Shown in pieces: positions 1 through 32,404 of a stretch of DNA of 64,000 bases (position 1 is the stretch's first letter; the number at the start of each line of letters is the position of its first letter). Under the pieces are notes generated by a model. The model made no database searches. It had not been told where the DNA came from and worked only from the letters and a program-made list of their open reading frames with translations. The stretch spans positions 1,116,001 to 1,180,000 of the forward strand of contig WBMQ01000007.1 of the NCBI GenBank assembly GCA_016630905.1, written 5' to 3'. The DNA is from Capillidium heterosporum (taxonomy: Eukaryota > Entomophthoromycota > Entomophthoromycetes > Entomophthorales > Capillidiaceae). The translations under genes and the position numbers were made by a program.

Positions 1-362
1 TTTTTAGGTTGGGTATTGCCTAAAAAGCTGTATATGAGGGATTTGGTATGAGTTCGCGACGACCTTATATCCTTCTGCTTGATCAAAACTACTTCGTCAT
101 AAGCTAGGAAAAAGGTTAAAAATTTGGCTAGGACCACGAAAGTTTTCGGGGATTTGGCGGTAGGGTAGAGGTAACTTGCCAACTCCAACCCAGCTTTAAA
201 GTCTGTAGACATGCCTAATTTGTCAAAGTTGGATTTTACCCATTGGTTGATTTCGGCCAATATTGCTTCATCCTTTCCCAACGGGTTTATGGTTGTCCGT
301 TTAGGTAGTAGTATGGGCGGAAGGTGGAATTTATCGACTTTGAAGTTGGATCCGACTATCAT
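1..362 (-). CDS. Class I terpene synthase paralog, cut by window edge
   Basis: Reading from ATG at 362 to the window edge gives about 120 residues open throughout. They match the N-terminal third of the three complete terpene synthases in this window: FKVDKFHLPP near residues 8-16, an EINQWVKSNFDKLG block near 37-50, and the KFLTFFLAYD block near 80-89. The usual acidic metal-binding motif of class I synthases (DDxD/E in the paralogs) reads DEVV here, so the second acidic position is lost. The rest of the gene, including the NSE/DTE motif, lies outside the window. Because the C-terminal part is unseen, I cannot say whether this is an active enzyme, a divergent one or a pseudogene. Family assignment rests on direct comparison with the paralogs. 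Confidence 0.8.
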   Translation of the reverse strand, partial: MIVGSNFKVDKFHLPPILLPKRTTINPLGKDEAILAEINQWVKSNFDKLGMSTDFKAGLELASYLYPTAKSPKTFVVLAKFLTFFLAYDEVVLIKQKDIRSSRTHTKSLIYSFLGNTQPK

Positions 363-861
363 TATCTATTTTATTAAAGTTGAAACTTGTTGGTTTGGAA
401 CTTGAGAGGTACTTATGTAAATTTGTAGTTGTAGGAAAAGCATTCGTTAATTTATTTAAAACATCAAAGTTCGTCGGAATTGTACAATTGATACGTGGTA
501 TATTTGGTTGGAGTCAACCGATTTCAATCAGATTTTTAACGTCCAAGGTTTTACAAGGGAATTAAAAGCTTGTCGGTTGTAAACTAAAAGCTGTTGTTGC
601 ATACCTAAGCTCAATTAATTAGCTGCCCTTCTTTAGATACCTTCTTCAAACTTAGGTTGCGCAATTTCAACTTTCATTCAACGGTTGTGCTGGTACCCAT
701 ATCTCACTAACGATCCTTGGTTAAACTTTAATTGCGACTTTGACATGTGGAATTGTCTATTTGAACTTGTAAAGTTACCCTTCACAGCCATCTCTTGAAA
801 TCTATCTCTAGGGTTAAATTCCTATAAACTTCAACATGAAAGAAAAGTGCTATAAACCTAT
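363..861. other. Intergenic, nothing recognised
   Basis: AT-rich spacer between the 5' end of the partial terpene synthase and the 3' end of the Zn2Cys6 regulator. The short open frames here have no recognisable composition or motif. Confidence 0.5.
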
Positions 862-2707
862 TTATTTGAAAAAACTCTCATCAGCGTAGAAAGTCGAAAA
901 GAAGAGGGCGACTCCACTCTTAGTAAAAGTGCCTTTCCTAAAGATTTTCAGGTACTCCAGCCCATTGTCGATAACCAAACTTATTTCCTTAAATTCAGGA
1001 TACAGATTCCTATAAAGCTTAAGGTGGTTTAGGGCTGCGAACATGGGGAAAAGAGAAAAGGGATGGTACTTGCCACAGGTACCAAAGTTGATATAGATAT
1101 TGACGATTCTTATAAAACAATCGATACACTTGGTAGCTAAAGCTCGTGTCGCTATAGGGTCAGGATGTAGAGCAGGATCTTTTATGCAGATGGGCAGTGG
1201 CATCGAGTATGGGTTGGGATTGAGGAAGTATTCCAAGTCATAAAATCGCGCTAACGTCACGAACAATGCCATGTTAGCCAAGTTGATCATCTTATCGAAC
1301 AAAGTGACGATGTAAGTAGGGCATTCGCTATACTTCCGTCGGTACTTGATAAGCTTCCTCAATCGCATAAAAAAAGTTTGGATGGCGAGTTCCTTACACC
1401 ATGTTATCAGTGCTCTTAATTCTCCTGATGGAGTAGCCTGCTCCATAATTTTAGCTCGAAGTTCACCTAGGGCCAGAGTAACTATGGTATCCAACTTAAA
1501 CCCTATAGATGCAATGACGATACAATCCATCTCGGGATTATCTTTCAGACTGCAAGGCAGCCTCCAATCGGATAGAAACTGATTCGTGAACATGGATTTC
1601 AAATCGAGATCTAGCAACGCTGGTAGGGGGAACTGGTAAGCAAAAGTTTTGAAGTTGCCCAGGTGTAAACTGCAAGTCCGTGTCAAAATCTCGGTTACTG
1701 TAGAGTAGGTGATGTTTCGTTCAAACTGCACGACCTTACATATGTTCAATCGTTTCGGTAGATCTAGATGAAGTCCCAGCGCATGAATCATGTTGTTTAA
1801 TATCATAGGTGCTCCCTGGCCTATAGGCGTCAGCTTGACGTTGATGGTGAAGCAAAATATGATATGCAGCGCTTGGACCGAATCCAAACAACTTTTGAAA
1901 GTGATCGATTTAGCTAGGTAGACGATCTCATCGGTAGCCGCTTCTAACCAACTTATATCTTTCGTTTCAAGGCTCAACCTCTGTACACCCAAAACATAGA
2001 CCAGTAGGTTAAGTAGCCTGGAACGTTTCAATTGAAAAAAGGTTTCCCTCGTAAAAAGCGGTGAAAATGGATTGAAGTAGGTGAAGTATGCTTCGATGGA
2101 GCGGTAGTATATCTCAGGCGTGCCGTATTCGACTATAGGACTTGGTACCGAGTAAGTTATTGGGGCTTTGATGCCTCGGTTGTTGCGCCAAGTTTTGGTA
2201 TAGATATGCTTAGAGTATTTGATTATATTCTGGATGACTTGGATTTCCTTTAAGCTATCAACTTTGAACTTTAGCCCCATAATAGTGGCGTACAAGCCAA
2301 CTAGAGTGTGTTTAGATATCGTCTTCAACAGCCTATACTGTGGTAGACTGTAATTTGGTACGACTAGAGATCTAAGAGTTTCAAGCAAAAGTTAGCGCTG
2401 GTATAAGCAAAAGTGTTTACTTTCCAAGATCAAAGTAAATAGGATTGGACCTGGGTTTCAAAGTGACATTTAAAGGGTTGGGTTGCTTGGCCTTGTCCAA
2501 GACAACTTTGCGCACCCTTTTATAGGTTCGATTGTAGGTACAAGGGTTGTTGGATTGGAGGCAGGTCGTACATATAGGTAGGTGCATGGAACACTTCTGT
2601 TTCCTCGAGTTGCATCTATCACAAGCTCGGTTACTTATCACCAAGTTGGCGCTTTCGTTGACATAGTTGAAGTTGTTGGAACTCAAGTTTTTGAAGCTGT
2701 TGGCCAT
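862..2707 (-). CDS. Zn2Cys6 fungal transcription factor
   Basis: Two exons (2707-2421 and 2371-862) are joined across a 49-nt intron with a GTAAAC donor, a GCTAAC branch site and a CTTAG acceptor. The product is 598 aa. Residues around 29-56 hold a textbook binuclear zinc cluster with spacing C-x2-C-x6-C-x6-C-x2-C-x6-C, beginning CDRCNSRKQKC, followed by a basic linker (YKRVRK). The long remainder resembles the middle homology region of fungal regulators: helical, with an FNPFSPLFTRETF-like segment. Such proteins act in the nucleus as sequence-specific activators or repressors. It lies between the edge terpene synthase and the rest of the terpenoid genes, so it is a candidate cluster regulator. 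That role is inferred from position only. I chose the ATG at 2707; the codon just upstream is GTG. Confidence 0.88.
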
Positions 2708-2710
2708 CAC

Positions 2711-4004
2711 AAAAGAAAACTAAGATGAATGTAGAGAAAATTCGATGAAAATAAGTGCTTATTAATGCGATTTTTTGACTCATAGTAACAAGTTATTTTG
2801 CAAAACAAATGAAGGAAATAAATTAGACTTGATATATAATTTGGTATCGAGACTTTGAAGTATACTAATTTTTCTTTTGATCAGGATCTGATATTAATCA
2901 TAGGAACATTCTTCAATTTGGCTGTCGGAAATAGGAATTTCTCATTTTTGTAAAGGGAATCAAATTCGTTGTCGGAAGTTGGATTTTACATTTCGCTATA
3001 AATGGCAAGTGACTACCACCGAGAACATGTTGTGCCTTGAGGTTTAAGGATAACTTTGGCAACGAAAATTTGTCCATAGTTTGGAATATCTACTAAGCTC
3101 TACAAGTGTTTTAGTTTATAGATAGCCTCGGCTATTTAATAGTCCTATGAACTGTGTTTTAATATAACCCAGTTTCGACTTGCTTTTAATTCCTTTATTA
3201 CCAAAACGATATGCATATTTATCTATCTATCTAAATATATACAGATAACCAATTTTAAGTATCCCTATTAGACGCTATGCAATAATCCTAGTAGATGATA
3301 AATTCAAAGGGGAATAGCGATTCCCGTTTCAACAAAGCACATATCAACATTTTAAGGATACTGTTAATATATATTAGCCATATAGTGCAGGAGCCAACGT
3401 AACCAGTGACTGCCTTTAACATTAGTCTGATACAAATATATATTTAGCGTTATGTAAAAGCATTATAAATACATAGCTAATCTATTAGATTTTAGCGACT
3501 GGGTGGTTTACTATATCGTAGCTCGCTAAATCTCCAGTCCGCACTGATGATCGGAAGCTTGGTAAGAGTCAAGCTCATCAAGATGAAGTAATGCCAACGG
3601 TAATAGATTGATATAAGCCGATGTATTATAGCTTCTATAGGAATCAATAAAAACACGTGGTATTTCAGTTCGGTCTATTGGTAGATTCTTATTGTCGGGA
3701 TGATTGACTATCTGGTTTATAGTAACTAGTTTATTGTAATCTAATGGCCTTTTATTGGATAGTATTGAGAAGTTAATAGATAAGGGTGTCAATAAAGTTT
3801 AAGAGGATCTCATTTAGAAGTATAAATTTATTTATTCAAATAACTTTATAATTCAACATATTTAATTGGGTAGTTTATAATACTATAGACAAAAGATTGG
3901 GTATTGTAGAATAATGAGATCTCTACAAACCATATACTTATAATATATATAAATTGCCTATACTTTAAAGCAAACTAGAAACTGGTGCTCCATGAATTTA
4001 TTTA
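2711..4004. other. AT-rich spacer, no supported gene
   Basis: About 1.3 kb of AT-rich sequence upstream of the Zn2Cys6 gene and downstream of the lipase relic. A TATC microsatellite-like run lies near 3218-3232. An 88-codon open frame on the minus strand (3792-3526) has no motif I recognise and is not supported as a gene. Confidence 0.5.
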
Positions 4005-7121: not shown

Positions 7122-7278
7122 TGATCAGAATTTAAAGACCGATTCCATTTTTACAATTTATCTTTTTACAGCTGTACCAAAGCTGCCTTCAAAGATATCG
7201 ATAGGCAGGATTTGTCGTGCCATCATCAGATCAACCATCCATTTCAAATGGGAAAAAGGAAGCCGGATATGACTAAAT
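7122..7278 (-). pseudogene. Short coding relic of unknown origin
   Basis: A minus-strand frame ends with a stop at about 7162. It encodes roughly 45 residues of protein-like composition (IRLPFSHLKWMVDLMMARQ followed by an ILPIDIFEG piece). It has no start codon nearby and sits just downstream of the terpene synthase gene on the same strand. It looks like the surviving 3' end of a lost gene. I do not recognise the family. It could also be chance. Confidence 0.25.
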
Positions 7279-7368
7279 CCATTACCAATTTCGGTTATAT
7301 ATTTTTACTTTTTAAAACTGTATACGTATATTGAAGCATCATTCATAATTTAAAAACAATAAACTTTA

Positions 7369-8412
7369 CTACTTGGTTAAGCAGGTAAACTCCGGATTCA
7401 TATGTAGCCATCCCCCATCCTTAATTTGAATATTCGATCGTTTATCGACAGGTCCATGGTACCTTGGTGTCTCCTGCGAATAATTTAGATTTCCATTCAT
7501 GCAGCTCAACAAAAGCCTTATATACTCCTTCTCTTCCTCGGTAGGGTTTTCCTCAAGTATCGCATCCCTTTCCCTGTAGAATTCCTGTTCAAATTTTTTA
7601 ATAAGCTCATTAGTGATCTCTACAGCCTTGTCGATACCCAACTTATGATGATAGGCCAAGATAAAAATACAGTTCGCCCCCATATCCTTGTAATACTCCT
7701 TACGGAAGGAGTACAAATCATTTACTAGACCTAGATGCTTGGCGCAGATGTGAAATAAGTCATTAAACTTGGTGTTAGTCGTGATAGGCTCCAGGAATTT
7801 GGAAGTATCTAAGTTTTGAATAGCTTCCCCGATACTGGTGATCAGCACGGCGCCTCCACTCTCTTCCCTAAAGCTTAAGTATTCCTCTATAGTAACTACC
7901 TGGCTACCGTCTTTCAAACTTTGTTTAAGTTGCTGCTCCTTGAACACGGACTGTACCCATAATCTCATGCCTAAACTGATTCGATCGCTGCATGCTTTAT
8001 TGGTATGAGCTCTTATCTCCGAACCGAAATGCTGCATCAGCTTACCTACGCCATCTTCTGGTTCTATTTCTCCATCAAAAACTTGAACTAACTTGTCAAA
8101 TTTCTTACTTGAGCTAGAGGTTGAGTTGGTATGATCTACATCGTCGTAAGCGAATATAAAGGTTAGGAATTTGGCCATCAGTATAAAGTTTTGTTTGGAG
8201 GTGGCGTTTGCGTACATATAGGTTGCAAATTCTAAACCCATCTTAGTCGATGGGGAGTCAGATACCTTACCTAATTTAGATTGAAGCCAATTGTCGATTT
8301 CCGTTTTCACGGTTGAGTCTTCACTAAATTTGCTTTTGAGGTTGGAACTTTCTTCCAGAGCTATGGCTGGTAAGTAGAACCTGGTAACCTTGAAGTCAAA
8401 TTCTGAATTCAT
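7369..8412 (-). CDS. Class I terpene synthase (paralog 1)
   Basis: 347 residues from ATG 8412, exactly the length of the paralog at 20179. The frame stays open upstream to an alternative ATG at 8565/8568 that would add 52 residues. Class I terpene synthase hallmarks are present: an acidic metal motif in FAYDDVDH (residues 90-93), the NSE-type motif NDLYSFRKE at 231-239, and a terminal RY pair at 317-318. The expected chemistry is Mg2+-dependent ionisation of a prenyl diphosphate such as FPP, followed by cyclisation, in the cytosol. The product cannot be predicted. It is strongly similar along its length to the synthase at 22755 (shared SPSTKMGLEF, SDRISLGM, DMGANCIFILAYH). It is divergently arranged with the antiporter gene at 8894. 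Confidence 0.9.
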   Translation of the reverse strand: MNSEFDFKVTRFYLPAIALEESSNLKSKFSEDSTVKTEIDNWLQSKLGKVSDSPSTKMGLEFATYMYANATSKQNFILMAKFLTFIFAYDDVDHTNSTSSSSKKFDKLVQVFDGEIEPEDGVGKLMQHFGSEIRAHTNKACSDRISLGMRLWVQSVFKEQQLKQSLKDGSQVVTIEEYLSFREESGGAVLITSIGEAIQNLDTSKFLEPITTNTKFNDLFHICAKHLGLVNDLYSFRKEYYKDMGANCIFILAYHHKLGIDKAVEITNELIKKFEQEFYRERDAILEENPTEEEKEYIRLLLSCMNGNLNYSQETPRYHGPVDKRSNIQIKDGGWLHMNPEFTCLTK

Positions 8413-8893
8413 CTCTTGAATATTGTTAACTGTTATCGCTATTGCTTGATTGTAACCTATAGACGCTGACACGAAGCTTTGTTGTTGATCTGAGATGGTG
8501 CAAGCAAAAATTCTAATTGTGACAAAGCTAATCGATTTTGTTTCAAATGAAAGTACGTCATCCATCAATCCAATAAGCTTTCATCAGCAACTGCTACGAT
8601 AAGCCTTTATTCGTCTGCCTTTGGTGTATTCAAAACTGAATTTGAATCTGACACCACAATAGACAATGTCGGTGTAGCATCAAAAGGATGGAAAGCCACC
8701 TCAATAAACTCAATCTAAATATAAATGGCAAACCTTTTCATTTATTTGCCAACCCGTTAGTTTAACTTCGTTGAGTCGCCAAACCTATAAATTTGAAACC
8801 TAAGGACGACTGCTTATATTTACCTCAAATATAACATCCCAACATCCCAACTCAACCATTTATAAGAACTCAACATCTTATAAACCCTATCTG

Positions 8894-11508
8894 ATGACTA
8901 TTCCAGCCGATCACAATACCGAAGGCTCGTTCCTAATTGGCCGGAACCCCTTCCAATTCACCTTCCTCCAACCTTTACCTTTCTTCATCCTACAGATGCT
9001 GATAATAATATCCTTCTGTCGACTTATCCAACTTATTCTAAAACCCCTTAAGCAGCCGGCCATAATAGCCGAGATCCTAGCTGGTATAGTGTTAGGACCT
9101 TCAGCACTAGGCTACGTACCCCATTTCAAAGAAACCATATTCCCCGATAACAGTTTACCCTTCCTAAACCTAGTTTCCAATTTCGGCTTGGTTTTATTTC
9201 TATTTCTAATAGGCTTGGAGTTGGATCCAGTAGCTATGAAGAAGGATTTCAAGTATTCGATATTTATCTCGGTTGCTGGGATGGCTTTGCCCTTTGTTAC
9301 TGGAGTGGGAGCTTCCTATGCTTTGTTCTCGCTAATTGAAACCGAAACTAAGGTGGGATTTCCTACCTACGTTTTGTTCTTGGGGGTAGCTATGGCTATA
9401 ACGGTAATCTTCAAGCGTTTAATCATTTTTATTAACCATAAATAAAGGCTTTTCCAGTACTAGCCCGAATTCTAACCGAGCTACGTATGCTAAAGACCAA
9501 AGTGGGTAAGATTACGGTGGCTTCAGCCGCTATAGATGACGTTACATCTTGGTGCCTACTAGCCTTAGTCATCTCGATGATCAACGCCGGTTCGGGTTTA
9601 GTCGCCCTCTACGTCTTCCTTATGGGCTTGGGGTATACCCTTATCCTTGTATTGCTAGTCCGTCCCATTCTTCTCTTCGGGTTCCGACGTAGTGGTGTAT
9701 TGAACCGAGGTCCATCCCAGTTCGTTATGTTTGTTGTTTTAGGTCTGGTTTTTGTGAGTGCTTTTATTACCGATGCCATAGGCATCCATGCTATCTTCGG
9801 GGGCTTTATAATCGGGGTGATCATGCCCCATGAAGGAGGGTTCGCCGTAAGCATAACGGAAAAGATCGAAGACTTGATAACGGTCCTTTTCCTACCCCTC
9901 TATTTCGCGCTGTCAGGATTGAAAACCGATATCACCACTTTGAATGATGGATTAGGCTGGGCTATGGTAGCCTTGGTCATAACTGTCGCCTGCTTAGGTA
10001 AAATCATCGGTTGTACTCTGGCTGCCAAAGCTTCCAAATTGAGTTGGAGGGAATCCTTTGCAGTGGGTATTCTGATGAACTGTAAGGGTTTAGTTGAACT
10101 CATCGTACTAAATTTGGGGTACGATGGTGGTGTAATTTCGAAACGCACCTTTGCCATAATGGTCCTTATGGCCCTATTTACCACCTTTATGACGGTGCCT
10201 TTAGTCTCCATAGTATATCCCCCTTCGATCTACCGAAAGAAGAATGAAGTTGACGTGGATGATTTTGATGGTAGAAAGTTGAATCTTATGGTATGCTTGA
10301 GCAAGATCGATCATGTCCCAGCAGTTATGACCTTAGTGCAGATGTTGCAACACGACAATTCGAATCACTTCCCACCTGAGCTACCAGCTCCTGGACAAAA
10401 TGATCTATTCAAGAAACCAGATAGTGGCATTGATCCTCTCCTATCATTAAAGGTCTATGCTCTTCGGTTAATGGAGTTGACGGAACGGAATTCGAGTGTT
10501 ATGCACTACTCCGAATCAGACGGGACCTTACAGCTTGACCCAGTGATGAACGTCTTTCGAACCTTCAGTCAACTTATGGCAGTAGGTACCAAATCTATGT
10601 TGCGAGTGGTTCCGATCCAAGACTTTGCTGATGTTACCAAACGTCAGGCTGATGAAGTCAAGGCTGATTTAGTTGTCGTACCATGGGCTGGAAGTGGTAC
10701 ACTAATTAACGTTACACCTACTCCACTTGAAGAGCTGTTTCAGTCCAATATACGAAGGAAAGAGAATCGACATACATCGATGCACCACAACAACTTTGTC
10801 AAGGAGCTATTCAAAAGTTCACCGTGCTGTGTTGCCGTTTTAGTGGATAGAGGGTTCGCCATAAGTCAACAAACTAACCCCAACTCTTCTACAGCCACAT
10901 CACCACCTCAATCCCCAGTATCGGAGAGGTTTAATACACCATCGAGCAGTGCTCAACAGATCCTATTTCCGTTCTTTGGTGGTGCAGACGATCGAGCTGC
11001 TTTGGACATCGTGTTTGGACTGGCACAGCAGAATTCGGTCAGTGTCAAAGTTCTAAGATTTTTACATAGTACCACTGCCTCAGCTTTAAACAGGATAAAT
11101 TCCACTTCGACTATCAGCACCACCGTTACTGAACTAGATTCTCTGCCACTCCCCGCCACCAATCAATCCGATTTCCTTAAATCCCAAACTTTGGATCAAC
11201 AGCTCCTGGATCATTACTTTGGTACCAATATTAACCCTGACACTACTACCCATCAAATAGGCAGGATAGCTTACGAAATTATCAAAACGTCTGCTCCACT
11301 ACGTGATTTTTTAGACTATTTAACGCCACTCACTAGGAAGGATTTGGTCGTCGTTGGTAGGAGAAACAGTCTGACTTTGGAACAGCTATATGGGTTTGAA
11401 ATGAAAAAGCTAGATGGAGCTAGGCGAAAGACTTTGGGTGATTTGGCTGAAGCAACTCTGCGAATTAACGGGAGGGCCTCCTTGCTGATCGTTGGAAAGA
11501 GGAATTAG
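8894..11508 (+). CDS. KHA1: Kha1-type cation/proton antiporter (CPA2 family)
   Basis: Two exons (8894-9403 and 9448-11508) with a 44-nt intron; 856 aa, close to the roughly 870 aa of yeast Kha1. Splicing restores the conserved reading AIT-AFPVLARILTEL. The N-terminal half is a Na+/H+ exchanger domain of about 12 membrane spans, with signature pieces LAGIVLGPSALGY, LFLFLIGLELD, DDVTSWCLLA, GAxFGGFIIGVIMPHE-like and NCKGLVELIVLN. The C-terminal half is soluble and resembles the universal-stress-like domain of this family (TPLTRKDLVVVGRR, RASLLIVGKR). In yeast this protein acts in Golgi-type membranes in K+ and pH balance. It is a housekeeping-type gene embedded among the terpenoid genes. A link to secondary metabolism is not evident. 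Confidence 0.92.
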
Positions 11509-12140
11509 ATATATGCAAGGCAGTTACTACTATAAACTAATAAATACACTTTCTTTCTATTTATATTTAAATGGAACAAGAAGTATAAACTTATAGTTTA
11601 GCAAATACTTTTTATACATCGAATTTTAAACATATGTAGCAGTTTCTAGATGTTAGCGTCGTAAATTTTGAACTCAGATATTTAAACCGATATTCTTCAA
11701 ACTTAAAAGCTAATACAAGTTTTCAAAAAAAGCCTTAGATTTGATAATTTATGTTTCTATATCCATCACTTAAAGATGCTAATTTTAAAACATTGTTGTG
11801 CAATAGATTTTACCTAAATAAGGATTGAATACCACTAAATTAGTGATAAAACATGAAAATAAGACGAAAAAAGCAGAGGTGCGATAAGATAAAGAAGCTA
11901 CTATATGGTTCAAAACCCATGTCCAGCTCTGCAACCAAATATTATTATGCAAAGTCCAAAGCCTTTGTCTAATATCTACATTAGTTAGAGGGTCTCCAAT
12001 AATTAGACTGCAATCTTACATAACCTGAATCTAAAAAATATACGAAGCGTTTTATTATAAAACCTTTAAAACGGACATAGTTTGCAAAAAAGTAGTACAC
12101 ACCTGCCTCTCTATCCTAATTAATTGACCAAAAAGTTACG
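11509..12140. other. Intergenic
   Basis: Noncoding spacer of about 630 bp. A TATAAAAC element near 12056 lies some 80 nt before the CAP gene start and may be its TATA box. Nothing else is recognised. Confidence 0.5.
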
Positions 12141-13136
12141 ATGTTGACCATCCAACTTTCCCTACTGTTATGCCTGACGACCCTAAACTCTGTCCTAAGT
12201 GTAGCCACCAAGGAGGACCTCAGATTTGCCAAAGAAGTCTACGATCAACTTTTAATAGCAAGAGGTGGTAGAGCCATCGCCTACTCTCCAAATTTAGCCA
12301 AAGTAGCTCAGATTCACTGCGAAGACCTGAAGGCCAGCCATGCCATCCAGTCAAAGTACTGTAACATGCACAGCTGGTACCTCAACGGCATGAGTTCCGA
12401 CGATAGGGCCTGCTGCTACACCGAAGATCACAAGCAAGCCAAATGCATGTGGGATAAACCTAAGCAGCTCTCCAACTACAAGGGTAACGGCTATGAAGTC
12501 GTTTTCTACGCAACGGGGTACCTGCCCGATGCCGAGCGGGTCATTGAAGGATTCCGAAATTCTCCAGGCCATAACAAGGTGATTATGAATTTAGATGGTT
12601 GGAAGGAAGACTGGAATGCGGTTGGAGTAGGTCACTCTGGTCCCTATACCAACATCTGGTTTGGTAGGGAATTGGACCCCGAGACTGGCGATGATAAATC
12701 CTATCCTGACTCTGACAAAAAGTATCCAGTACAAAAGGAGGAGGTCAAGCAAGTTAAAGCTCAAGTCCAAGTCCAACCCGAAGTTAAAGAGAAGGAAGAG
12801 AAGAAGGTGGAGACAGTTACTATTACTGCTACCGCTACGGTCACTGTCAAAGAAACTTCTACCGCTACCGTCACTTCTTTGATCACCCAAACTGCTATTT
12901 CACCTTCAACTGGGAGTGTCCCGACCGGTACGGCCACTTGCCCAAGCTTTAGTGAAGAGTCATTCAAAGGGGATATTTGGTACCGTAAAGGGAATACTTG
13001 GTTTAGGGTACCCAAGCTTACGTACATCAAGCAGCTCTCGTTGGACGGTAAGACTCCGGGGTACTTTAAAGTTGATGAACCTACTGATGTCCAGAAGGGC
13101 TATGGATACGTCTATCGTCGTCCTAAAAAGAACTGA
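12141..13136 (+). CDS. Secreted CAP/SCP (PR-1-like) protein
   Basis: 331 aa, single exon. A signal peptide covers about residues 1-20 (LLLCLTTLNSVLSVA). A cysteine-rich CAP domain follows to about residue 185, with ANLAKVAQIHC-like, MHSW, GNGYEVV, GHNKVIMN and NAVGVGHSGPYTNIWFGRE blocks that correspond to the CAP core motifs. Next come a charged linker with Lys/Glu/Val repeats, a Thr/Val/Ala-rich stretch (VTITATATVTV) likely to be O-glycosylated, and a C-terminal segment of about 70 residues with YRKGNTWFRV that I do not recognise. Fungal CAP proteins are extracellular, and some yeast members bind and export sterols. That function is only a family possibility here. Confidence 0.82.
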   Translation: MLTIQLSLLLCLTTLNSVLSVATKEDLRFAKEVYDQLLIARGGRAIAYSPNLAKVAQIHCEDLKASHAIQSKYCNMHSWYLNGMSSDDRACCYTEDHKQAKCMWDKPKQLSNYKGNGYEVVFYATGYLPDAERVIEGFRNSPGHNKVIMNLDGWKEDWNAVGVGHSGPYTNIWFGRELDPETGDDKSYPDSDKKYPVQKEEVKQVKAQVQVQPEVKEKEEKKVETVTITATATVTVKETSTATVTSLITQTAISPSTGSVPTGTATCPSFSEESFKGDIWYRKGNTWFRVPKLTYIKQLSLDGKTPGYFKVDEPTDVQKGYGYVYRRPKKN

Positions 13137-13329
13137 TATATTTAAATAATAAGCTTTGACTATACTGTAATTGATTGTACTTTTTGAAATAAACTTTATG
13201 AATTATCTTTTTAAACCAATCTTTCTAGCATTTTGATAAGTAACTATAACAAACGATATGAAGTTTTACGTATATACATATAAATTTGATAAATTTAAAC
13301 CTTTTTTATGCAGTTATAAAAATTTCTAA

Positions 13330-13482: not shown

Positions 13483-14875
13483 GGTCTAAATACAATATTA
13501 GTAAAAGTGAATCTAAAGCTCCAGTACAGCTTGAACGATAGGAACAGATCAACTTTAAAACGGAGAGGTGAAGTGAACCTTATATTAGTCGGAGTGACCT
13601 TGACAAGGGGTCCAAATATACATCTCTAGCTTTTTTGAGAGCTCTACAAATACTATTTCAGCATAAAAGCTTAGTAAGTTTGAAAGGTGGGCTGATAATT
13701 CATCAAATTTGTATACTACATTTTACAATTGTAGCAAGGGAAAAATCAACGGCATGGGTTTAAGTACCTTGTACTCTACATATTTCACCCAAAATGCTCG
13801 GCCTAACCGTCTACTGAGAAGTATGTATCCTGTCATGAGTGGATGCCAGACGTTATGTAAAAGGGTAGTAGCATTTTTATCCAATAAATTTTATAAGCCA
13901 ACTGCTAAATCATTATTTGCCCAAGACCTAATGAATAAATCGATATAACCAATAGAAAGGGCCTTTTTGTCAAAGCTAAACTGAAACTTCCAATTATCTT
14001 TTCAAATCCACCTATGAATTTGAGCTAAATATAGTCCATATCTAAATATATATTTAATAAGTTCCGAATCAATTATACTATTTTTGGCTGTTTTTACTAC
14101 TTTGTAAGCAATTAATTTGGAATGGAAATCCTTCTGGAGACGGACTCTGCGACAAAAGAGAATTTTACGGTTCCTATCGGAATGCCAATATATTAGCAAA
14201 GTATAGCAGCCTTACTATACTAAACTACAAAGCAAATTGGTGATCTAACCTCAATATCTACAAACTTTCGTTGCAGTAAACTAATATATTGGTAGAAAAC
14301 TAAGGTTCTCATATGAAGAAGGCACAATCCCAATTAATGTGCTAAACCTTTAAACCTACAAATCCATAGCTGGACCTACTGGGTTATATACGGTTTTAAA
14401 TAAAGTAGTCCTCAATCACCTTCAAAGTATGTATTGAAATTCTCGGATAGTATTTGTTACAAACCAAATTCATTTAGCTGGACCATAGTGAAATATAGTT
14501 ATACGAATTGTGCAATAGAGTTTTCAAAATGTAGGTATTTAATTGTAGAAAGTTTGGGAATCTTTTTTACTTTCGTATCAACTAGTTTAGCTTTTCGAGA
14601 CCATCAATTTTCCCATCAGCCCTATATATACATTTGAATCTAGTGAGCCGTGCTTCTAATTTAAAGTATATTACATCTAATTCAAACTTTTAACCATTAT
14701 TATATTTTAGTTTAATTAATTAAACCTCAAAAAAGTAATTTCGTACTGCAGGATTTAAATCTTTCGGATACAAGTATATAACTGCTGCTTCCCACTATTT
14801 CATTTGCGTCTACCCTATCCTCATCAACTTTTATATAACAACACCTTTACTACGATTGTGCCAATCTAGAAAACA
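13483..14875. other. AT-rich spacer
   Basis: About 1.4 kb with only short, uninformative open frames on both strands. A TATATAA element lies near 14831, about 40 nt before the next start codon. Confidence 0.5.
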
Positions 14876-15307
14876 ATGAAGTTTATCCACCTAGTCGAGT
14901 TAACTTTAACTCTATCCACCTTAGTTTCCAGTAGACCCACCTCCAACGGTAGTAACAACCAAGTTGGTATCGTACGTAGGTACTGGGGCTACCCCATGAT
15001 TTGGGCTGATACTGGTGATCAGGATTCCCAAGCTACTACCGCCAACTCCAAAAGTGACATCAATTCGAACGCCAGCAACGACTACCAGAATACCAATACC
15101 AATAGTCAGAACTACGACCAAAGCTCGAACCAGGCTAACACTCAAGTAAACCAAAACAGCAATCGGAGGTTGATCAAGTCCAATACCAAGAAGAATATCA
15201 ACACTTACTCGGATTACGATTCAGACGTTATTGATTCGAGCCAAGAAGGCACCGATGGGAGTCAAAGCTACGTCAACGGTCTAATTTCCGGATTGAAATC
15301 CAATTGA
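14876..15307 (+). CDS. Small secreted Asn/Gln/Ser-rich protein
   Basis: 143 aa, single exon. Signal peptide at about residues 1-19 (MKFIHLVELTLTLSTLVSS). Shortly after it is a dibasic site in GIVRR followed by YWGYPMIWADTGDQD, an aromatic segment that could be a released peptide if a Kex2-type protease cuts there. The rest is low complexity, rich in Asn, Ser, Gln and Asp, ending in an amphipathic NGLISGLKSN. The architecture resembles the two Asn-rich secreted proteins at 26649-25924 and 32405-33538, although the leader is not clearly the same. No family is recognised. Function could be a cell-wall or matrix protein, or a peptide precursor; this is inference. Confidence 0.6.
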   Translation: MKFIHLVELTLTLSTLVSSRPTSNGSNNQVGIVRRYWGYPMIWADTGDQDSQATTANSKSDINSNASNDYQNTNTNSQNYDQSSNQANTQVNQNSNRRLIKSNTKKNINTYSDYDSDVIDSSQEGTDGSQSYVNGLISGLKSN

Positions 15308-15672: not shown

Positions 15673-17370
15673 TTAAATACTATTCTCCGAATCGGTAGAG
15701 TTGGCTTGAGACATTGGCAAGGAAAGTGGTGGTAAGTCGGGTGACAAGTAATCCAAATCATTGACCCCTTCATCGACATCCCTTTCATCTATCTCCTCAG
15801 CAATCAATGTACAAGCCTTTAGAGCGAAAGCCTGATCAACCAACTGGTTGAAGACTTTACCTTTAGTTGTAGGCAACAAGTAAAGCTCCGATTCTTTCCA
15901 ACTTCCATCCTGGGTTTGTAAATCTATTAACAATTGCCTATCTACCAAATTTTCTACATCGAACATATACGCCAAGATAATACGCTTGGATAAATCTAGT
16001 ACGTCACAAGTCCTACCCAAGCGTAACTTTATACCTTGAATGAGTTTTTTTTGCAGTTGACAGTGATTAGGTAGGTTAAACTTGTAAAGGATACGACTGA
16101 AGTGATACAGGAAAGTCTCGGGTTGGCGGTAGTAGTGAGTACCAAAGTGGTAGCCGTCGTTCAAAAGGAAGTTACTGACCAGCTTTAAATTCCTTACGAC
16201 GACAGGGTGTTGTGATAAGTTTAAAATGTAAGCACAGTAGATGACGTTGCAATTGACAACTTGATCCATTCTAGGTCGATCCTTATCGAAGTAAACTAAC
16301 AAATTGTTATCATCATCAACGTTCTTCAAGACATAGTTGAAGCATCTAACGGCCTGCTTCTTAGTGATGTAGCCCATCTCGTAGAAATAGGCCAAGTTTA
16401 GAGACATGGTGTCGATGTCGGCCGGTAATTTTTTGAAGTTCTGGCCAAAGTAACCAAAGGGTCCACTGGCAATTAAATCGATGACTTCTTGGATGATGGT
16501 ATCGTTCAGTAGGTTGCAATTGGATACGGTAGCAGCTAAAGTCGGGTTGAAGTACTCAAAGAGATCGCCACAGTAACATACTTTAGTTAGGTTTTCCATT
16601 TCCTCCGAATTGTTCAAGTTGATGTCCTTGGCTTGAACTGGTTGGTCCATAACTACGGTGGACTTGTACTCTTTCGTCGCAACTATACGTCGTAAAGCCT
16701 GCTGACCTAAATCTACAACCTCGTCCATATTTTTCGATCCGAATTGACGCATCAAACTTTCTAATCCGACATTAAATGGGAAAGCAAACCAACCGTTGGA
16801 GCGTAGATTAGCCGACATTTCCAAGGATTTACATACTACATAGGCACAGGATTGGTAGCTTGAGTTTAGGTTGGATATCGTGGTAAATAGTTGATCTTGC
16901 CATTGACTACCTAGAATTTGCAATACAGTTTGGTACTCGGGAACTGGTAGGTCGATGTATCCTACTACTTTGAAGTTTAGGGATTGAAGTTGAGTTAACA
17001 AGCCGTAGTTGATACTACATTTGGAAAACAACTTGTCTAACAGGGATTTGACTTCCGATATAGATAGTTTAAATTTGGTGCTTATGTTCTGTAAAAATTG
17101 AGGTTTAGTGATACTGTTGGATTGATATAGTTTAAATTGGTGATGAGCGAGCAACTTCTGCAAGATACGTTCTTCCTCGTTGATACCGTAGTTAAGTAGG
17201 ACCGATAGGCTTAAAACTACGATTGAAATGTTAGAGTCAGCGGAAAACTGAGTAGCAGAATTTGTAAATAGGTGAAGGTTAGGTTCGTGGGCTTTGTTGC
17301 CGAGGTCTTTGGTGTTGTCAAAATCTAGTTGTTGCACATTTATATAGGGAGACTTTATAGGTTTAAACAT
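15673..17370 (-). CDS. Class II terpene-cyclase-like protein (DxDT type)
   Basis: 565 aa, single exon. The C-terminal half has features of the prenyltransferase/squalene-oxidase repeat fold of class II cyclases: DIDTMS at residues 318-323 in the place of the proton-donating DxDD motif, RPRMDxxVNCNV at 365-376, and a QW-like QTQDGSW at 485-491. Variants with DxDT(T) occur in bacterial drimenyl-diphosphate-type cyclases. If active, the protein would protonate and cyclise a linear prenyl diphosphate, and a class I enzyme could then process the product. The N-terminal 260 residues are divergent. No class I DDxxD or NSE motif is visible, so it appears monofunctional. It lies between terpene synthases. 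A role as a non-catalytic repeat protein cannot be excluded. Confidence 0.65.
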   Translation of the reverse strand: MFKPIKSPYINVQQLDFDNTKDLGNKAHEPNLHLFTNSATQFSADSNISIVVLSLSVLLNYGINEEERILQKLLAHHQFKLYQSNSITKPQFLQNISTKFKLSISEVKSLLDKLFSKCSINYGLLTQLQSLNFKVVGYIDLPVPEYQTVLQILGSQWQDQLFTTISNLNSSYQSCAYVVCKSLEMSANLRSNGWFAFPFNVGLESLMRQFGSKNMDEVVDLGQQALRRIVATKEYKSTVVMDQPVQAKDINLNNSEEMENLTKVCYCGDLFEYFNPTLAATVSNCNLLNDTIIQEVIDLIASGPFGYFGQNFKKLPADIDTMSLNLAYFYEMGYITKKQAVRCFNYVLKNVDDDNNLLVYFDKDRPRMDQVVNCNVIYCAYILNLSQHPVVVRNLKLVSNFLLNDGYHFGTHYYRQPETFLYHFSRILYKFNLPNHCQLQKKLIQGIKLRLGRTCDVLDLSKRIILAYMFDVENLVDRQLLIDLQTQDGSWKESELYLLPTTKGKVFNQLVDQAFALKACTLIAEEIDERDVDEGVNDLDYLSPDLPPLSLPMSQANSTDSENSI

Positions 17371-17605
17371 GGCTCATTAATTAATTAAAAGTTAAAGGTA
17401 GTCGTATCTAAGCTTATGTAGGTTGGAATTTTAAAATCGTAAGCTAAATTAGGCCCAAGTCCTAACTATTTATACTTCCATCTCATTAGAACTTGTGTTT
17501 CTAGCCTGTGTAGACCAATCCTTTTCATTTGATCTATCTTTATAGAATTTGGTTTATTTAGATATGGACATACAAATTTTGGATAGTTTAAAACAGGATT
17601 AAACT

Positions 17606-22699: not shown

Positions 22700-22707
22700 T
22701 ATAAAAG
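22700..22707 (+). promoter_or_regulatory. TATA box of terpene synthase paralog 3
   Basis: TATAAAAG is 48 nt upstream of ATG 22755 and 75 nt upstream of the next in-frame ATG at 22782. Motif match only. Confidence 0.45.
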
Positions 22708-22754
22708 ATAAAGGCTTCCATCTCTAAAAAGTATATTCATATCAATTGACACCC

Positions 22755-23900
22755 ATGTCACTTTTCTTTTCACCCTCCATCATGTACCGACATAGTCCTA
22801 CTTTCCTCCTCAAGTCCTTCCGATCCATAGCGTCCCATGTAACGCCACCAACTAGAAGCATCCAAGAAACGAATCTGGGATTCAACTTCAAGGTCGACAA
22901 GTTCTATCTACCAGCCATTACCCTCAAAGAAAGGTCCTACCTCAAAAGTAGATTTAGTGAAGATCCGACCGTAAAAGTGGAAGTCGACAGCTGGCTCCAG
23001 TCTTCGCTAGGTCAAATCCCCGACTCCCCATCTACCAAGATGGGACTAGAGTTTGGCACCTACTTTTACCCCAATGCTACTTCCAAGCCAGCCTTCACCT
23101 TAATGTCCAAGTTTCTTACCTTCATATTCGCTTATGACGATCTTGAGCACTCCAACTCGATCGATAAATTTGACAAACATATCCAAATTTTTGACGGGAA
23201 AGTGGAGCCTGAAGACGGTGTAGGTAGGTTGATGCAACACTTTGGTTCTGAGATAAGGGCCCATACCAGTAAAGCGTGCAGCGATCGTATCAGTCTAGGT
23301 ATGAAATTGTGGGTACGATCGGCGTTCAAAGAGCAGCAACTCAAGCAGAGCTTGAAAGATAGCAACAAAGTAATGACCATAGAGGAGTATCTCAACTTTA
23401 GAGAGGAGTGTTTCGGTGCCGTACTTTTGACTGGTATTGGCGAAGCCGTCCAGAACTTGGATACCTCCAAATTTCTAGCACCTACCACGACCGGTTCCAA
23501 ATTTAACGGTGTATTCAAAGCTTGCGTCAAACACCTGGGTTTAGTAAACGATTTGTACTCCTTTCGCAAGGAGTACTACAAGGATATGGGCGCCAACTGT
23601 ATTTTCATCCTAGCTTACCATAGCCAGTTCAACTTCAATAAAGCAGTTAAAATTACCGAGAAACTCATTAAGAAGCACGAGCAGGAGTTTTACAGGGAGC
23701 GCGACATCATTCTTGCCGGCAATCCTACCAAGGAAGAGAAGGAGTACTTAAAGCTATTGTTGAACTGTATGAACGGGAATTTGAACTACTCGCAGGCGAC
23801 AGTCAGGTACCATGGAGCTAGAGATAAACAATCGGGTATTGAAATTAAGGATGGGGGATGGTTGCATATGAATCCAGAGTGTACCTGGTTGACCAAATAA
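22755..23900 (+). CDS. Class I terpene synthase (paralog 3) with N-terminal extension
   Basis: 381 aa from ATG 22755 (an alternative ATG lies at 22782). The metal-binding motif reads DDLE (FAYDDLEHSN, residues 128-131), followed by an NDLYSFRKE NSE-type motif and a terminal RY. It is closest to paralog 1, sharing FSEDPTVKVE-like, SPSTKMGLEF and DMGANCIFILAYH blocks and the IQE.N segment just before the catalytic domain. The first 40 residues (MSLFFSPSIMYRHSPTFLL onward) are rich in Ser, Arg and hydrophobics and almost lack acids, like a mitochondrial presequence. That would be unusual for a terpene synthase. It may instead be a wrongly extended start, although no ATG exists between 22782 and the domain. 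Confidence 0.88.
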   Translation: MSLFFSPSIMYRHSPTFLLKSFRSIASHVTPPTRSIQETNLGFNFKVDKFYLPAITLKERSYLKSRFSEDPTVKVEVDSWLQSSLGQIPDSPSTKMGLEFGTYFYPNATSKPAFTLMSKFLTFIFAYDDLEHSNSIDKFDKHIQIFDGKVEPEDGVGRLMQHFGSEIRAHTSKACSDRISLGMKLWVRSAFKEQQLKQSLKDSNKVMTIEEYLNFREECFGAVLLTGIGEAVQNLDTSKFLAPTTTGSKFNGVFKACVKHLGLVNDLYSFRKEYYKDMGANCIFILAYHSQFNFNKAVKITEKLIKKHEQEFYRERDIILAGNPTKEEKEYLKLLLNCMNGNLNYSQATVRYHGARDKQSGIEIKDGGWLHMNPECTWLTK

Positions 23901-25923: not shown

Positions 25924-26649
25924 CTATTTAGGGATGGCCAGAGACTCACTGATAAAATTCTCAATAAATTCGTTGGTAAGGCCATCCTCCCCAGCACCTT
26001 GACCACCCTTATTGGAGCTGGAGTTGGAGGTACTGACATTATTTCCACCACTATTATCACTGTACTTGGTGCCATGATTGCCGGAATTATCGTGTGTGTG
26101 GGAATTGTTTCCAGTGTTTGAATTGTTACCGGTATTGGAATCGTTATGGCTATGTGAGTTGTTTCCAGTGTTTGAGCTGTTGGCGTTAGAGCCGGTGCTG
26201 GTATTTGCAGTATTACTAGCGTTGGTGTTTTTATTGGTATTCGAGGTGGAACCGTTATTGAGGTTCGAATTGGCGTTATTGTTGTTAACTGCATTTTGGT
26301 TGGAGCTGTTGTTTACAACATTGCTGTTATTACTAGTGTTGGAATTATTATTCGTAATGTTTTCGTTGTTACTGACATTGCGATTGCTATTTACGATGTT
26401 TTTGTTACTAGTTTCACTGTTGTTGTTATTGCTACTGTTGCTATTATTAGCACCATTGTTGGAATGGTTATCGGTATGGCTATGGCCTCCGGTGTTCGCT
26501 TGAGGATAGATTGACTTTTTAGCTTCGTTCAGCATGTTGTGGATGATGTGAAACTTATGTATACCTTCGAGGGTACGACGTTCCAAGGGGACAGCTTCTA
26601 AGGTAGCGATGGCCGTTACAAAGATGACGATAATGTTTCCGAGCTTCAT
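25924..26649 (-). CDS. Secreted Asn-rich protein with prepro leader
   Basis: 241 aa, single exon. Signal peptide MKLGNIIVIFVTAIATLEA, then PLERR, a Kex2-like dibasic site at about residues 21-25. A short helical segment with HKFHIIHNMLNEAKKS follows. The centre (about 55-215) is almost entirely Asn, Ser, Thr, Gly and His, in imperfect SNTGNNSH-type repeats. The end, GLTNEFIENFISESLAIPK, is an ordinary amphipathic segment. The leader is near-identical in pattern to that of the protein at 32405 (LEAVPLERR against LEAIPLERR), and both have a (L/V)TNE segment at the C-terminus, so they are paralogs. Many N-glycosylation sequons occur. Possibly a cell-wall or extracellular protein; function unknown. 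Confidence 0.72.
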   Translation of the reverse strand: MKLGNIIVIFVTAIATLEAVPLERRTLEGIHKFHIIHNMLNEAKKSIYPQANTGGHSHTDNHSNNGANNSNSSNNNNSETSNKNIVNSNRNVSNNENITNNNSNTSNNSNVVNNSSNQNAVNNNNANSNLNNGSTSNTNKNTNASNTANTSTGSNANSSNTGNNSHSHNDSNTGNNSNTGNNSHTHDNSGNHGTKYSDNSGGNNVSTSNSSSNKGGQGAGEDGLTNEFIENFISESLAIPK

Positions 26650-28239
26650 TTTGAAAATTTAGTTGTAATGTATATAGAAACCAGTTCTTTATGCTTTGGG
26701 CTGTAGGTAGTTTTTTCCACAGGAAAATATTTGATAGTTTGATAATAAATATTTTGTACAGCTGTATGTCCTTTATATACTAAAATTAAATGATAAATAT
26801 GGAGGTAATACATGAGCGTATATATTTTAAACCACTGTCGGTCTATAATGAATTACTATTTAAGGAGATGCATCCCATTCAAAAGAGTATGTCGTTACTA
26901 GTAGGGTTGTGGCAACCTTAGCGATTTGAAGTTTATTAATTTTTTGAGGACCCTCTTGGACATGGCGAAGCACTTTAATTAAAATTTATACTCGAAATAT
27001 CAAGTGCTGTTGATCAAGTAGAATCCTTTACTCGGGTATACATAGGCTCCTATATTATCAAGCATATTATATATTCGCCTTGTGTGTGTGTAAAATTTTA
27101 ATTACACCTTCTGTTCACATTGTCGATATATTAGCTGTATAATTGTATTACTCTTCAACCATTAAACAATGTTAATTAAGTTAAAACAGGTATTTTGGTT
27201 ACACAAGTTTATATATTATCGGAATTCATGTATTCCCATTTTATCTGTGATATATATAATATTTACTTTCGCCTTCGGTTTGCTCTGATAAAATGAATTA
27301 ATTGATTGCACTACTTTACACTTAATTCCAGAATTGACTGATTTTGTTTATTGGAAAATAAATACTATATGAATTTGTATAAAATTAAATAGCTAATCAG
27401 CATATATATTAAACTTTATTTATGAAATCTTTACATTATAGATCCAGCCAATTGCAAACTACAATTATAATCAAATTGAAGTCCAAATTCTATATATTTC
27501 TGCTGACTTCAACATGCTGTATCCTTCAGCTCAAGAACCAGTCTCCTGTGGGAAAATTTGCAAATTCCCAATAGTTTTGGATTCAAGTCATCCTTCTGGA
27601 ATTCTCCTACAAGCTTGAATCTAAATTTTCAAATATGTCAGCAAACGATATTCTCAATGGGTTTTGTAGAGTATCAAATTTGCACTTATTAGTACAAAGC
27701 TTATAAACTGATAGACATAGAACTTTTCATTAAATCTAGCTTTGATTTGACGTATTTTGAAGCTATCCATGATGATTATCCAACTTTCACAAGTTATAAA
27801 GGATTCAATGTCAAATCATTGTTTCTCAGGGTATGAGTTCATTGGATAGGAATTCTAAATCAAAGCCTTCAATTTAATTTGCTCAGGCATGTTATTAAAT
27901 AGGCCGTTAAACAAACAACCAAATTATTTTCACTTTTGTATCGATTTAAAAGGATAGTTTATCTTAATAAAATTAAATGTAATAACTACTTTATATCGAA
28001 ACAAATTGCTGTAAAGGAAATGCCGCCCACTAAACCAATATAAAAAGCAAAAACAGATAATTGAACTGAAAACTTGATCAACTATATTGGTTTGAATCTA
28101 ATATTCGTATACCAACAACATTGAAGATAGACGTCTACCTTCAAAGTTAAAATAGCAAATATTAATTTAATAGATCACGAACTATAAATATACATCTTTT
28201 CCAAAATACAGACCCTGAACAATTTTAATCATAATTACA
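26650..28239. other. Divergent AT-rich spacer
   Basis: About 1.6 kb between two divergently transcribed secreted-protein genes. It must contain both promoters. No gene or repeat identified. Confidence 0.5.
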
Positions 28240-29901: not shown

Positions 29902-30091
29902 ACATTTTTTACTATCACGTCGTACTCTACCTCATACCCTCTATAAATCCCATCACCTATCCTAAGTTTTATATTAAAAAGTCTGAAAGAATTTGAATAT
30001 GCATCCACACTTTATAATTTATGCTATACTTAAACATAAAACTATCATATCAATCCTAGTTTTATTTACACTATAATAAAACCTACTTGAA

Positions 30092-30986
30092 CTAATCCTT
30101 CTTATAGTACCTGGCTCTAAACTTGGCATCGGTTCCGTGCAAGTAGTCCAAAACTCCAATGACACCGAACATGTTATCAAAGGTTTCATGGTGGAAGTCG
30201 TGTAGCTTAGCATCGGGTAAATAATCCAATTCATAACCACCGTGGGTAACTACCGTGTTGACAATAGCGATTATAAAGTATAGGTAGACAGTAATGGGAT
30301 GGGCTTTGGTAATCAGTGGTCCTACCAATAATGGGAATAGGTTGGAAACTATAAAGTCAACGGGAGTTGTATACACAGCTAAAATAAAAAAGGCATTGGT
30401 AAGTTGTATTAGAATAGATAAAATTACCAGAAATACCAATGGGCGCTGTAAACTCATGGTGCTTCTTGTGGAACCTCTGGTAAAAGAACTTGAGGTGGAA
30501 GAGCCTATGGGAGTAGTAGAACAGAACTTCTTCTACACCAACGCAGATGATAATATCTCGAACAGTAGTAAACAAACTAGGCAAATCCTTGTAAAGTTCA
30601 CGGTTACTACTTTCTATGAAGCGTGGGGAAGCTGGGTGCAAAAGGTAGTACAGAGTGAGGGCGAAAGGTAAAGCTAGTACCAGCAAGTTAAAGGCTACCC
30701 GTGGTAAAGCTACTAAATAATCTTCGGCGTTTGGTGACTTTTTGGGTTGGACTCGGTTTGTCAAGTCGTACCTAGGGTACAAATATAAATCGATTAAAGC
30801 TAGTAGCAAGCCAAAGATGGTGTAGGCGAATAGAGCAACGGTCAAAGTTCCAAATAGGAGTAGTACGAATGGAGAGTACTGCTTAGAGAGATTGGTCCAT
30901 ATTTCTGGTAGGTAGGTTGACTTGAACAGTTGGTAACTCGTCAACAGTACGATGAAAAACAGTCGGCCTTTGATAAAGTTTAGCAT
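30092..30986 (-). CDS. ERG25-like membrane fatty acid/sterol hydroxylase
   Basis: Two exons (30986-30428 and 30378-30092) with a 49-nt intron; 281 aa. Splicing gives [20 protein letters not shown]. All three di-iron histidine boxes of the fatty-acid-hydroxylase/sterol-desaturase family are present: HRLFH, HKKHH and HDFHH, the last followed by [13 protein letters not shown], which is typical of C-4 sterol methyl oxidase relatives. Several membrane spans surround them, so it is expected in the ER, using O2 to hydroxylate a lipid, sterol or terpenoid. A housekeeping ERG25 may exist elsewhere, which would make this an accessory paralog. Its place beside the terpene genes suggests, without proving, that it tailors a terpenoid. 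Confidence 0.85.
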
Positions 30987-32404
30987 GGTTCTTGTTGGAT
31001 TTGAATTCTGGTTGATTTTGATCTTGAAATTGAAAGCAAAGGAGATGAGAAATTTGAAGCTTTATAAATCAAGATGGGATTTATTCTATGACGTATAAAG
31101 TAAATAAAAGTACAGGGGATATAAAAAGTGGAAAGGTTGAAGTAGGGATGCCAGACAGGTGGCATATAACTTATTATGAAACTTGGGGAACGAACGTTCA
31201 GTTCAGGTAGATGGATAAACTACTGACTATACTACAGGTCGATGTCGGATAAACTACTAGCTATAAGAAAAGGTCATAGTCTGTACCTTGCACATATCGT
31301 ATTCCAAAGATGAAGGCAGACTAAAATCGAGAATCTGTCAAAGTTGAATAAAGAAGCTTGCAAAACTTGACATGATGACTTCAAATTAACCGATACAAAA
31401 AGTAACCCTAGGACGGGTGGTTTCATCACATTTACGAATTGGGTACACGAAAATGTGGAGAGTTCCGACATATTTGGCTTTCCAAAAAATAGCATATCTC
31501 TAGCTTCCTATATCGAACCTTTTAAAACCTTGGAACAAGGTGAGAGTCGGGTCTACTCATATTTTCGTATAAGTAGAAAGCAGTATCAAAGCTTCTATTA
31601 GAAATCCTTGTGGAAATGAAGTCCGTCTTATTGAATTGGAATAAATAGGATGTACTTGGATTTTCTATTAGAAACTTTGAAATTTGTACTAGATTGTACC
31701 TATTTTTAAAGAATTTCTTACTAAATTCTTTTATATTTACTTTCTGATATATAAAACAGTTTACTTTAAAGGTGAAGTTTAAACTGGTGCACTAATTTTG
31801 CTGATATACCATCAAGGTGAATAGAAGGCACAGCATTTAACCTATATATTTACTATAAACAGATCGGATACATGTTAGCTTTGTTACTGAGATACTATTA
31901 TGGATCCTTTAACAATAGGATTCTATTTGGCAATGTATTTTTAATATCCAAAGTGAATGTTTTAATTCAAGGACTTTGCAAGTCAGCTAAGAGGATTCAT
32001 AAAAATTTTCAATAGATTTTGGGCTGGTATGGGAGCTTCGGAGCCCTCGGATACCACTAGAGAAATGAAATTCAATTAATGGAAAGTATATTTTATCAAA
32101 TAATATTGTAAATATTGCTATATATTTAAGGCTTTTAATATATAAACAAATTGGCGACGATATCCATCAAGCTTTCAGATGCAATGAACCAACTCGAATA
32201 ATATTCTACTATAGACCAACAGTGGTTAAAACTATATACGCTCACGTATCGACTCCACATTTGGGCTTCACTTTCAGTATAAAAAGAAAATGCATTCATA
32301 TAAATAGCTAGTATCAGACGATTAAATACCATCCCGTATAAGCTACTTAAAATTCAAAGTCTACAGAATTAGTTTCTCGACAACTCCTCAACTAAACCCC
32401 TCAA
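30987..32404. other. Divergent spacer
   Basis: About 1.4 kb AT-rich spacer between the hydroxylase (minus) and the Asn-rich protein (plus). No supported gene. Confidence 0.5.

What the first reader, a model, noticed from the sequence alone, without database searches (positions are those of the whole stretch)
1..31000. Dispersed terpenoid locus: four class I synthase paralogs, one DxDT class II cyclase, a hydroxylase and a Zn2Cys6 regulator
Four homologous class I terpene synthases, a class II-type cyclase with a variant catalytic motif, an ERG25-like oxygenase and a Zn2Cys6 factor lie within 31 kb. Co-occurrence of separate class II and class I enzymes suggests a two-step cyclisation pathway (protonation-initiated, then ionisation-initiated). 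The genes are spread among unrelated ones and large AT-rich gaps, unlike compact fungal clusters. Whether they act together is inference.
Basis: partly seen in the sequence, partly recalled or inferred. Interest (0 to 1): 0.85.

Follow-up and report, generated by a model that had tools for sequence, protein, structure and literature searches.

The report
Fungal terpene locus with unusual cyclase
A fungal genome region carries a group of terpene-making genes, one of which is a rare two-domain cyclase whose phosphate-removing half has apparently lost its active site, so it may pass its product on with the diphosphate still attached.

Summary
[quoted passage not shown] Six of the genome's seven class I genes lie in 40.5 kb, and the genome's only copy of the cyclase sits among them. 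The cyclase is not of the classical kind. It belongs to the HAD-like terpene cyclases (bacterial AsDMS, fungal AstC): its cyclase half matches AsDMS at E 9.3e-22. The acid motif D318-x-D320-T321 and the Asn and Tyr that position it are kept, while all four HAD phosphatase motifs are changed or deleted. It therefore most likely releases a bicyclic, drimane-type diphosphate. That neighbouring class I enzymes then use this product is inference. The regulator and hydroxylase add little: at least 150 Zn2Cys6 and about six FA_hydroxylase genes exist, none of the 94 P450 matches lies on this contig, and no shared promoter motif emerged. One class I paralog has lost both metal motifs. Verdict: a real, non-random terpenoid locus holding a new variant of a known cyclase family.

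The parts
1..365 (-). 5' part of class I synthase T3 (whole frame C42:1115214-1116365); both metal motifs degenerate (YDEVV, NDLYAFRNQ)
862..2719 (-). Zn2Cys6 factor, exons 2417-2719 (Zn_clus, E 6.5e-9) and 862-2391 (Fungal_trans, E 0.0028, below its cut-off); link to the pathway unproven
7369..8580 (-). class I synthase T4 (PF19086, E 9e-23); open frame, true start uncertain
15673..17370 (-). HAD-like class II terpene cyclase, 565 aa from the first Met: degenerate HAD domain (about 50-200) and cyclase domain (about 215-525) with D318-x-D320-T321; single copy in the genome
20095..21222 (+). class I synthase T5 (PF19086, E 4.5e-21), divergent from the cyclase; first Met near 20179
22728..23900 (+). 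class I synthase T6 (PF19086, E 1.2e-18), with an N-terminal extension
30092..31061 (-). FA_hydroxylase-family (ERG25-like) gene, two exons, probable 49-bp intron at 30379-30427; link to the pathway unproven
8804..11508 (+). Na/H-exchanger-family antiporter between T4 and the cyclase; unrelated neighbour
12120..13136 (+). secreted, weakly CAP-like protein (E 0.026, below cut-off); unrelated neighbour

Best explanation
A fungal terpenoid locus in which local duplication of class I (ionisation-initiated) synthases surrounds one HAD-like class II cyclase. The class II protein takes farnesyl diphosphate into its C-terminal barrel, D320 protonates the terminal double bond, and the chain closes to a bicyclic (drimane-type) diphosphate; D318 or water takes the last proton. 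Its HAD half lacks the nucleophile, the Ser/Thr, the Lys and both metal-binding Asp, so it acts only as scaffold or lid and the product leaves as the diphosphate. Shown: gene content, homology, kept and lost motifs, single copy, clustering. Inferred: substrate, product, catalysis. More speculative, and not part of the stated confidence: that a neighbouring class I synthase ionises that diphosphate.
Against: No activity data. The residue after DxDT is Met, not Thr, and AstC K451 (diphosphate sensor) aligns with Thr (AsDMS has neither Lys). The model is weak (mean pLDDT 54) and its alignment held AsDMS-type rows, so the fold match is partly circular; the HAD half is barely tested. The HAD homology rests on hhalign E 1.5e-4, probability 51%. 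Substrate could be GPP, GGPP or something else.
Confidence: 0.62

Rival explanations
1. The class II cyclase and the class I synthases work in separate pathways. The drimane-type diphosphate is dephosphorylated by a phosphatase encoded elsewhere, as AstI and AstK do for AstC, and the class I enzymes act on FPP or GGPP alone. This shares the first step with the best explanation and differs only in the partner.
For: AstC needs AstI and AstK (PMC5024094 passages). The best structural matches of T5 are VenA and AriE, which I recall as enzymes acting on linear GGPP. Two HAD_2 matches exist elsewhere in the genome.
Against: Neither HAD_2 match lies on C42, whereas class I genes adjoin the cyclase.
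Confidence: 0.45
2. Coincidence: a tandem array of class I genes and an unrelated class II gene happen to be neighbours, with no shared pathway or regulation.
For: Local duplication explains the class I array (T1/T2 inverted repeat; T4 and T6 72% identical). Unrelated genes intervene. Regulator at chance level. No shared promoter motif.
Against: Chance of the only HAD-like cyclase lying in the same 40.5 kb is about 0.0014 (post hoc). No ORF of 100 aa or more lies between the cyclase and T5 or between T5 and T6.
Confidence: 0.2
3. The class II protein is a pseudoenzyme or does different chemistry, because of the Met after DxDT and the decayed HAD half.
For: DxDTM instead of DxDTT; all HAD motifs changed.
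Against: Frame intact over 566 codons. The metagenome relative P0001 (39% identical over 67% of the query) keeps the same LPADIDTMS, Asn and Tyr, as expected under constraint. AstC works without a phosphatase half.
Confidence: 0.1

Closest known systems
AstC, drim-8-ene-11-yl pyrophosphate synthase of Aspergillus oryzae (PDB 22TZ, 22TY)
   Same: HAD-like plus cyclase domain, DxDT acid motif, positioning Asn and Tyr, no phosphatase activity
   Different: About 30% identical over the aligned cyclase part; AstC keeps two Asp of HAD motif IV, here none; AstC sits with phosphatases and P450s, here with class I synthases
AsDMS, bifunctional drimenol synthase of Aquimarina spongiae (PDB 9MHS; L013)
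   Same: Same two-domain layout and best sequence and fold match
   Different: AsDMS has a working Mg-dependent phosphatase half and DxDTT; the window protein has neither an intact HAD site nor the fifth Thr
P0001, unnamed metagenome protein
   Same: 39% identical, same DxDTM, HAD motifs II to IV lost too
   Different: Partial; no species or gene context known
Class II to class I relay of labdane-type diterpene pathways (copalyl diphosphate synthase then kaurene-type synthase)
   Same: Proposed logic only: protonation-initiated, then ionisation-initiated cyclisation (recalled)
   Different: Here the class II enzyme is HAD-fused and probably C15-specific, and no hand-over has been shown

Membership tests
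HAD-like terpene cyclase (AstC/AsDMS type) | C-terminal class II beta-type cyclase domain | tested here: met
   AsDMS E 9.3e-22, AstC 6e-17; profile comparison of the cyclase halves E 1.6e-25; fold match
HAD-like terpene cyclase (AstC/AsDMS type) | DxDT acid motif with positioning Asn and Tyr | tested here: met
   D318-I-D320-T321, N375, Y414. The longer form DxDTT named in PMC9128629 is not met: the fifth residue is Met
HAD-like terpene cyclase (AstC/AsDMS type) | N-terminal HAD-like domain | tested here: met
   Moderate support: collinear alignment, hhalign E 1.5e-4, probability 51%, control profile 0.33; weak model aligns from residue 61 on
HAD-like terpene cyclase (AstC/AsDMS type) | Working phosphatase site (present in AsDMS and AacA, absent in AstC, so not required for membership) | tested here: not met
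   D43 to Leu, S138 to Ile, K171 deleted, D195/D196 to Cys/Lys
HAD-like terpene cyclase (AstC/AsDMS type) | Cyclises FPP to a drimane diphosphate | not testable with these tools
   Needs an enzyme assay
Classical class II diterpene cyclase (beta-gamma, DxDD) | DxDD motif | tested here: not met
   DIDT
Class I terpene synthase | Terpene_syn_C_2 domain and class I fold | tested here: met
Class I terpene synthase | NSE metal motif NDxxSxxxE/D | tested here: met
   Kept in T4, T5, T6, T7 and, with Asp, in T1/T2; lost in T3 (6 of 7)
Class I terpene synthase | Asp-rich motif DDxxD/E | tested here: inconclusive
   T4-T7 read DD-x-D/E, T1/T2 DDIQL, T3 DEVV; the canonical form is recalled
Fungal terpenoid gene cluster | Backbone genes closer than chance | tested here: met
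   6 of 7 class I genes and the single-copy cyclase in 40.5 kb
Fungal terpenoid gene cluster | P450 or other clear tailoring genes in the cluster | tested here: not met
   None of 94 P450 matches on C42 (list is a lower bound); one FA_hydroxylase gene of unknown role 6 kb beyond T6
Fungal terpenoid gene cluster | Co-expression | not testable with these tools
   No expression data; promoter comparison found no enriched shared 8-mer and no CGG-N(0-12)-CCG pair

The most novel reading that the evidence does not exclude
A two-step sesquiterpene pathway in which a HAD-like class II cyclase with a dead HAD half acts purely as a diphosphate-releasing synthase and feeds an expanded set of neighbouring class I synthases: a second invention of the class II to class I relay known from labdane diterpenes, with the phosphatase step of AstC/AsDMS pathways replaced by class I ionisation.
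Probability: 0.25. Interest if true: 0.78.

Novelty: new variant of a known kind. Interest (0 to 1): 0.55.

Why it matters
The papers on HAD-like terpene cyclases seen here describe them from bacteria, Ascomycota and Basidiomycota, and most of the enzymes discussed have a working phosphatase half. This one seems to have abandoned that half and sits among class I synthases instead of phosphatases and P450s. It makes testable how cyclase-phosphatase fusions decide whether the product leaves as diphosphate or alcohol, and whether a class II to class I relay for sesquiterpenes has arisen in fungi. If the host proves to be an early-diverging fungus, which was not established, it would also add terpene chemistry to a lineage with few characterised products.

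Tried and rejected
A Conidiobolus-like (Zoopagomycota) origin is a guess from genome size, AT content and a rich P450 set, set beside a table in PMC12387763.

Regulator and hydroxylase as evidence: rejected, because Zn2Cys6 genes are common and the FA_hydroxylase search gave 7 exon matches, about six genes.

Shared promoter motif (8 promoters): no CGG-N(0-12)-CCG pair in any. With T1 and T2 pooled, one AT-rich 8-mer occurred in 5 of 7; with T1 dropped, none did; random windows of this region gave on average 0.22 such 8-mers. The class II binomial for class I clustering was not used, because tandem duplicates are not independent.

Phosphatase partner in the locus: none with PF13419. Prenyl diphosphate synthase in the locus: none of 7 PF00348 matches on C42.

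Wider homologues: two protein searches for the cyclase gave one relative, the same P0001 (in one search only the 7995 candidates sharing most words were scored). One for a class I synthase gave P0002. One search gave 9 bacterial loci; L021, a 349-aa frame too short for a HAD half, was left out of alignment A4. No Dikarya sequence other than AstC was reached, so placing the protein nearer to bacteria or to fungi was not attempted. P0001 carries a precomputed Pfam PF28380 that the local Pfam copy did not report for the window protein; its name is unknown to me.

Synteny: no related fungal genome is held. Model details of the cyclase: not interpreted (pLDDT 54).

Full report
Setting. The window is C42:1,116,001-1,180,000 of a 29.5-Mb assembly of 44 contigs. 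The gene set (Zn2Cys6 factors, NF1-type Ras-GAP, GH18 chitinase) is fungal by inference. The species could not be named, because seven identical 18S requests did not complete.

T1 and T2 lie in a 2.4-kb inverted repeat, 95.3% identical, arms 11.3 kb apart. Their coding parts are 99.74% identical (1140 columns), the flanks 91.41% (1234 columns), with 1 synonymous and 2 replacement codon differences in 380. That suggests gene conversion over the coding part (inference).

The class II protein. Window 17373-15673 (-) is an open frame of 566 codons, 565 from the first Met; numbers below count from that Met. It has no match in the local Pfam or in NCBIfam at E 0.1. It matches solved HAD-like terpene cyclases: AsDMS at E 9.3e-22 (frame residues 315-523) and AstC at 6e-17 (340-521); with P0001 added, 3e-28 and 1.5e-19. 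P0001 is a metagenome protein, 39% identical over 67% of the query. The genome holds one copy. AsDMS itself and seven close bacterial homologues were fetched as L013-L020.

Cyclase half. PMC13244436 (three of five parts read) reports AstC mutants. Its acid D273 corresponds to D320 here, its base D271 to D318, T274 to T321, N324 to N375, Y361 to Y414, R316 to R367 and K314 to R365. The paper reports D273N, D271A, D271N, T274A, N324A and Y361F without product. Not kept: the residue after DxDT is Met, also in P0001, and AstC K451 aligns with Thr (AsDMS has no Lys there either). The QW motif named in PMC5024094 is present as QTQDGSW. These equivalences come from sequence alignment, not from the model.

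Clustering and neighbours. A random gene would fall in the 40.5-kb span with probability 0.0014 (after the fact). No ORF of 100 aa or more lies between the cyclase and T5 or between T5 and T6, so cyclase, T5 and T6 are neighbours in 8.2 kb. Elsewhere an antiporter, a weakly CAP-like protein, an alpha/beta hydrolase exon, an amidohydrolase and a proteasome subunit lie between the class I genes. Zn2Cys6 matches number 150 of 281 candidates, so one in 31 kb has a 15-26% chance. FA_hydroxylase gives 7 exon matches, about six genes. P450 gives 94 matches, none on C42. HAD_2 gives 2 and polyprenyl synthase 7, none on C42. SQHop_cyclase_N gives 2 weak matches, both on C4, probably the sterol-pathway cyclase (inference). 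Promoters share no enriched 8-mer and no CGG-N-CCG pair. So backbone genes cluster beyond chance, while regulator and tailoring links are unsupported.

How it most likely works. FPP enters the barrel, D320 protonates it, a bicyclic diphosphate forms, and without phosphatase residues the protein releases the diphosphate. In Aspergillus oryzae separate HAD phosphatases finish that job (PMC5024094 passages). Here none was found near and class I synthases are, which makes a class II to class I relay attractive but unproven. I put the relay at about 0.25 and separate pathways at about 0.45; both share the first step, so the figures for best explanation and rivals overlap and do not sum to one.

Literature. 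One search found 0 papers. Searches (20 of 1,759 listed; 8 of 9; 4 of 5) listed the HAD-like cyclase papers used here, on bacteria, Ascomycota and Basidiomycota. The passage search of PMC13244436 found 0 mentions of Mucoromycota, zygomycetes or early-diverging fungi. One search listed 8 of 724 papers, none with the word drimane. PMC7466969 (sections 16 and 22 and passages) reports terpene cyclases in zygomycetes, many annotated as squalene synthases. PMC10210940 (passages) reports 3 sesquiterpene cyclases from two Zoopagomycota genomes. PMC12387763 (passages and tables) reports two terpenoid clusters in Conidiobolus coronatus. PMC9128629 (passages) describes the bacterial drimenol synthases. 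PMC11105155 (12 of 17 passages) gave nothing on this. None of the passages I saw describes a HAD-like cyclase in early-diverging fungi; the library holds open-licence papers only.

Noticed in passing
window about 55100-58451 (+): A single 933-aa frame joins the C-terminal part of isopropylmalate dehydrogenase (Iso_dh) to a whole isopropylmalate isomerase (Aconitase plus Aconitase_C); dehydrogenase-like N-terminal stretches are visible upstream by eye. It looks like a LEU2-LEU1 fusion; the other genome matches are only 34-40% identical. A paper search found 2 papers, neither with such a title.
   Followed up: partly
C42:1098822-1101199 and 1112492-1114871 (L008, L009): T1/T2 inverted repeat: coding parts 99.74% identical, flanks 91.41%, which suggests gene conversion over the coding part.
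   Followed up: partly
C42:1115214-1116365 (window 1-365 is its start): T3 keeps an open frame although both class I metal motifs are lost: a pseudoenzyme kept for another role, or recent decay.
   Followed up: no
window 22782-23900 (+): T6 has an N-terminal extension that resembles a mitochondrial targeting peptide by eye; no predictor was run.
   Followed up: no
window 25924-26658 (-), 32396-33538 (+), 14870-15307 (+): Small Asn/Ser-rich proteins with apparent signal peptides (by eye) that share a similar start; Pfam found nothing for the first and only a sub-threshold match for the third; the second was not scanned.
   Followed up: no
genome contigs C6, C38, C4, C43 and others: At least 94 P450 exon matches, many in tandem groups, and at least 150 Zn2Cys6 motifs: a large repertoire for a 29.5-Mb genome.
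   Followed up: no
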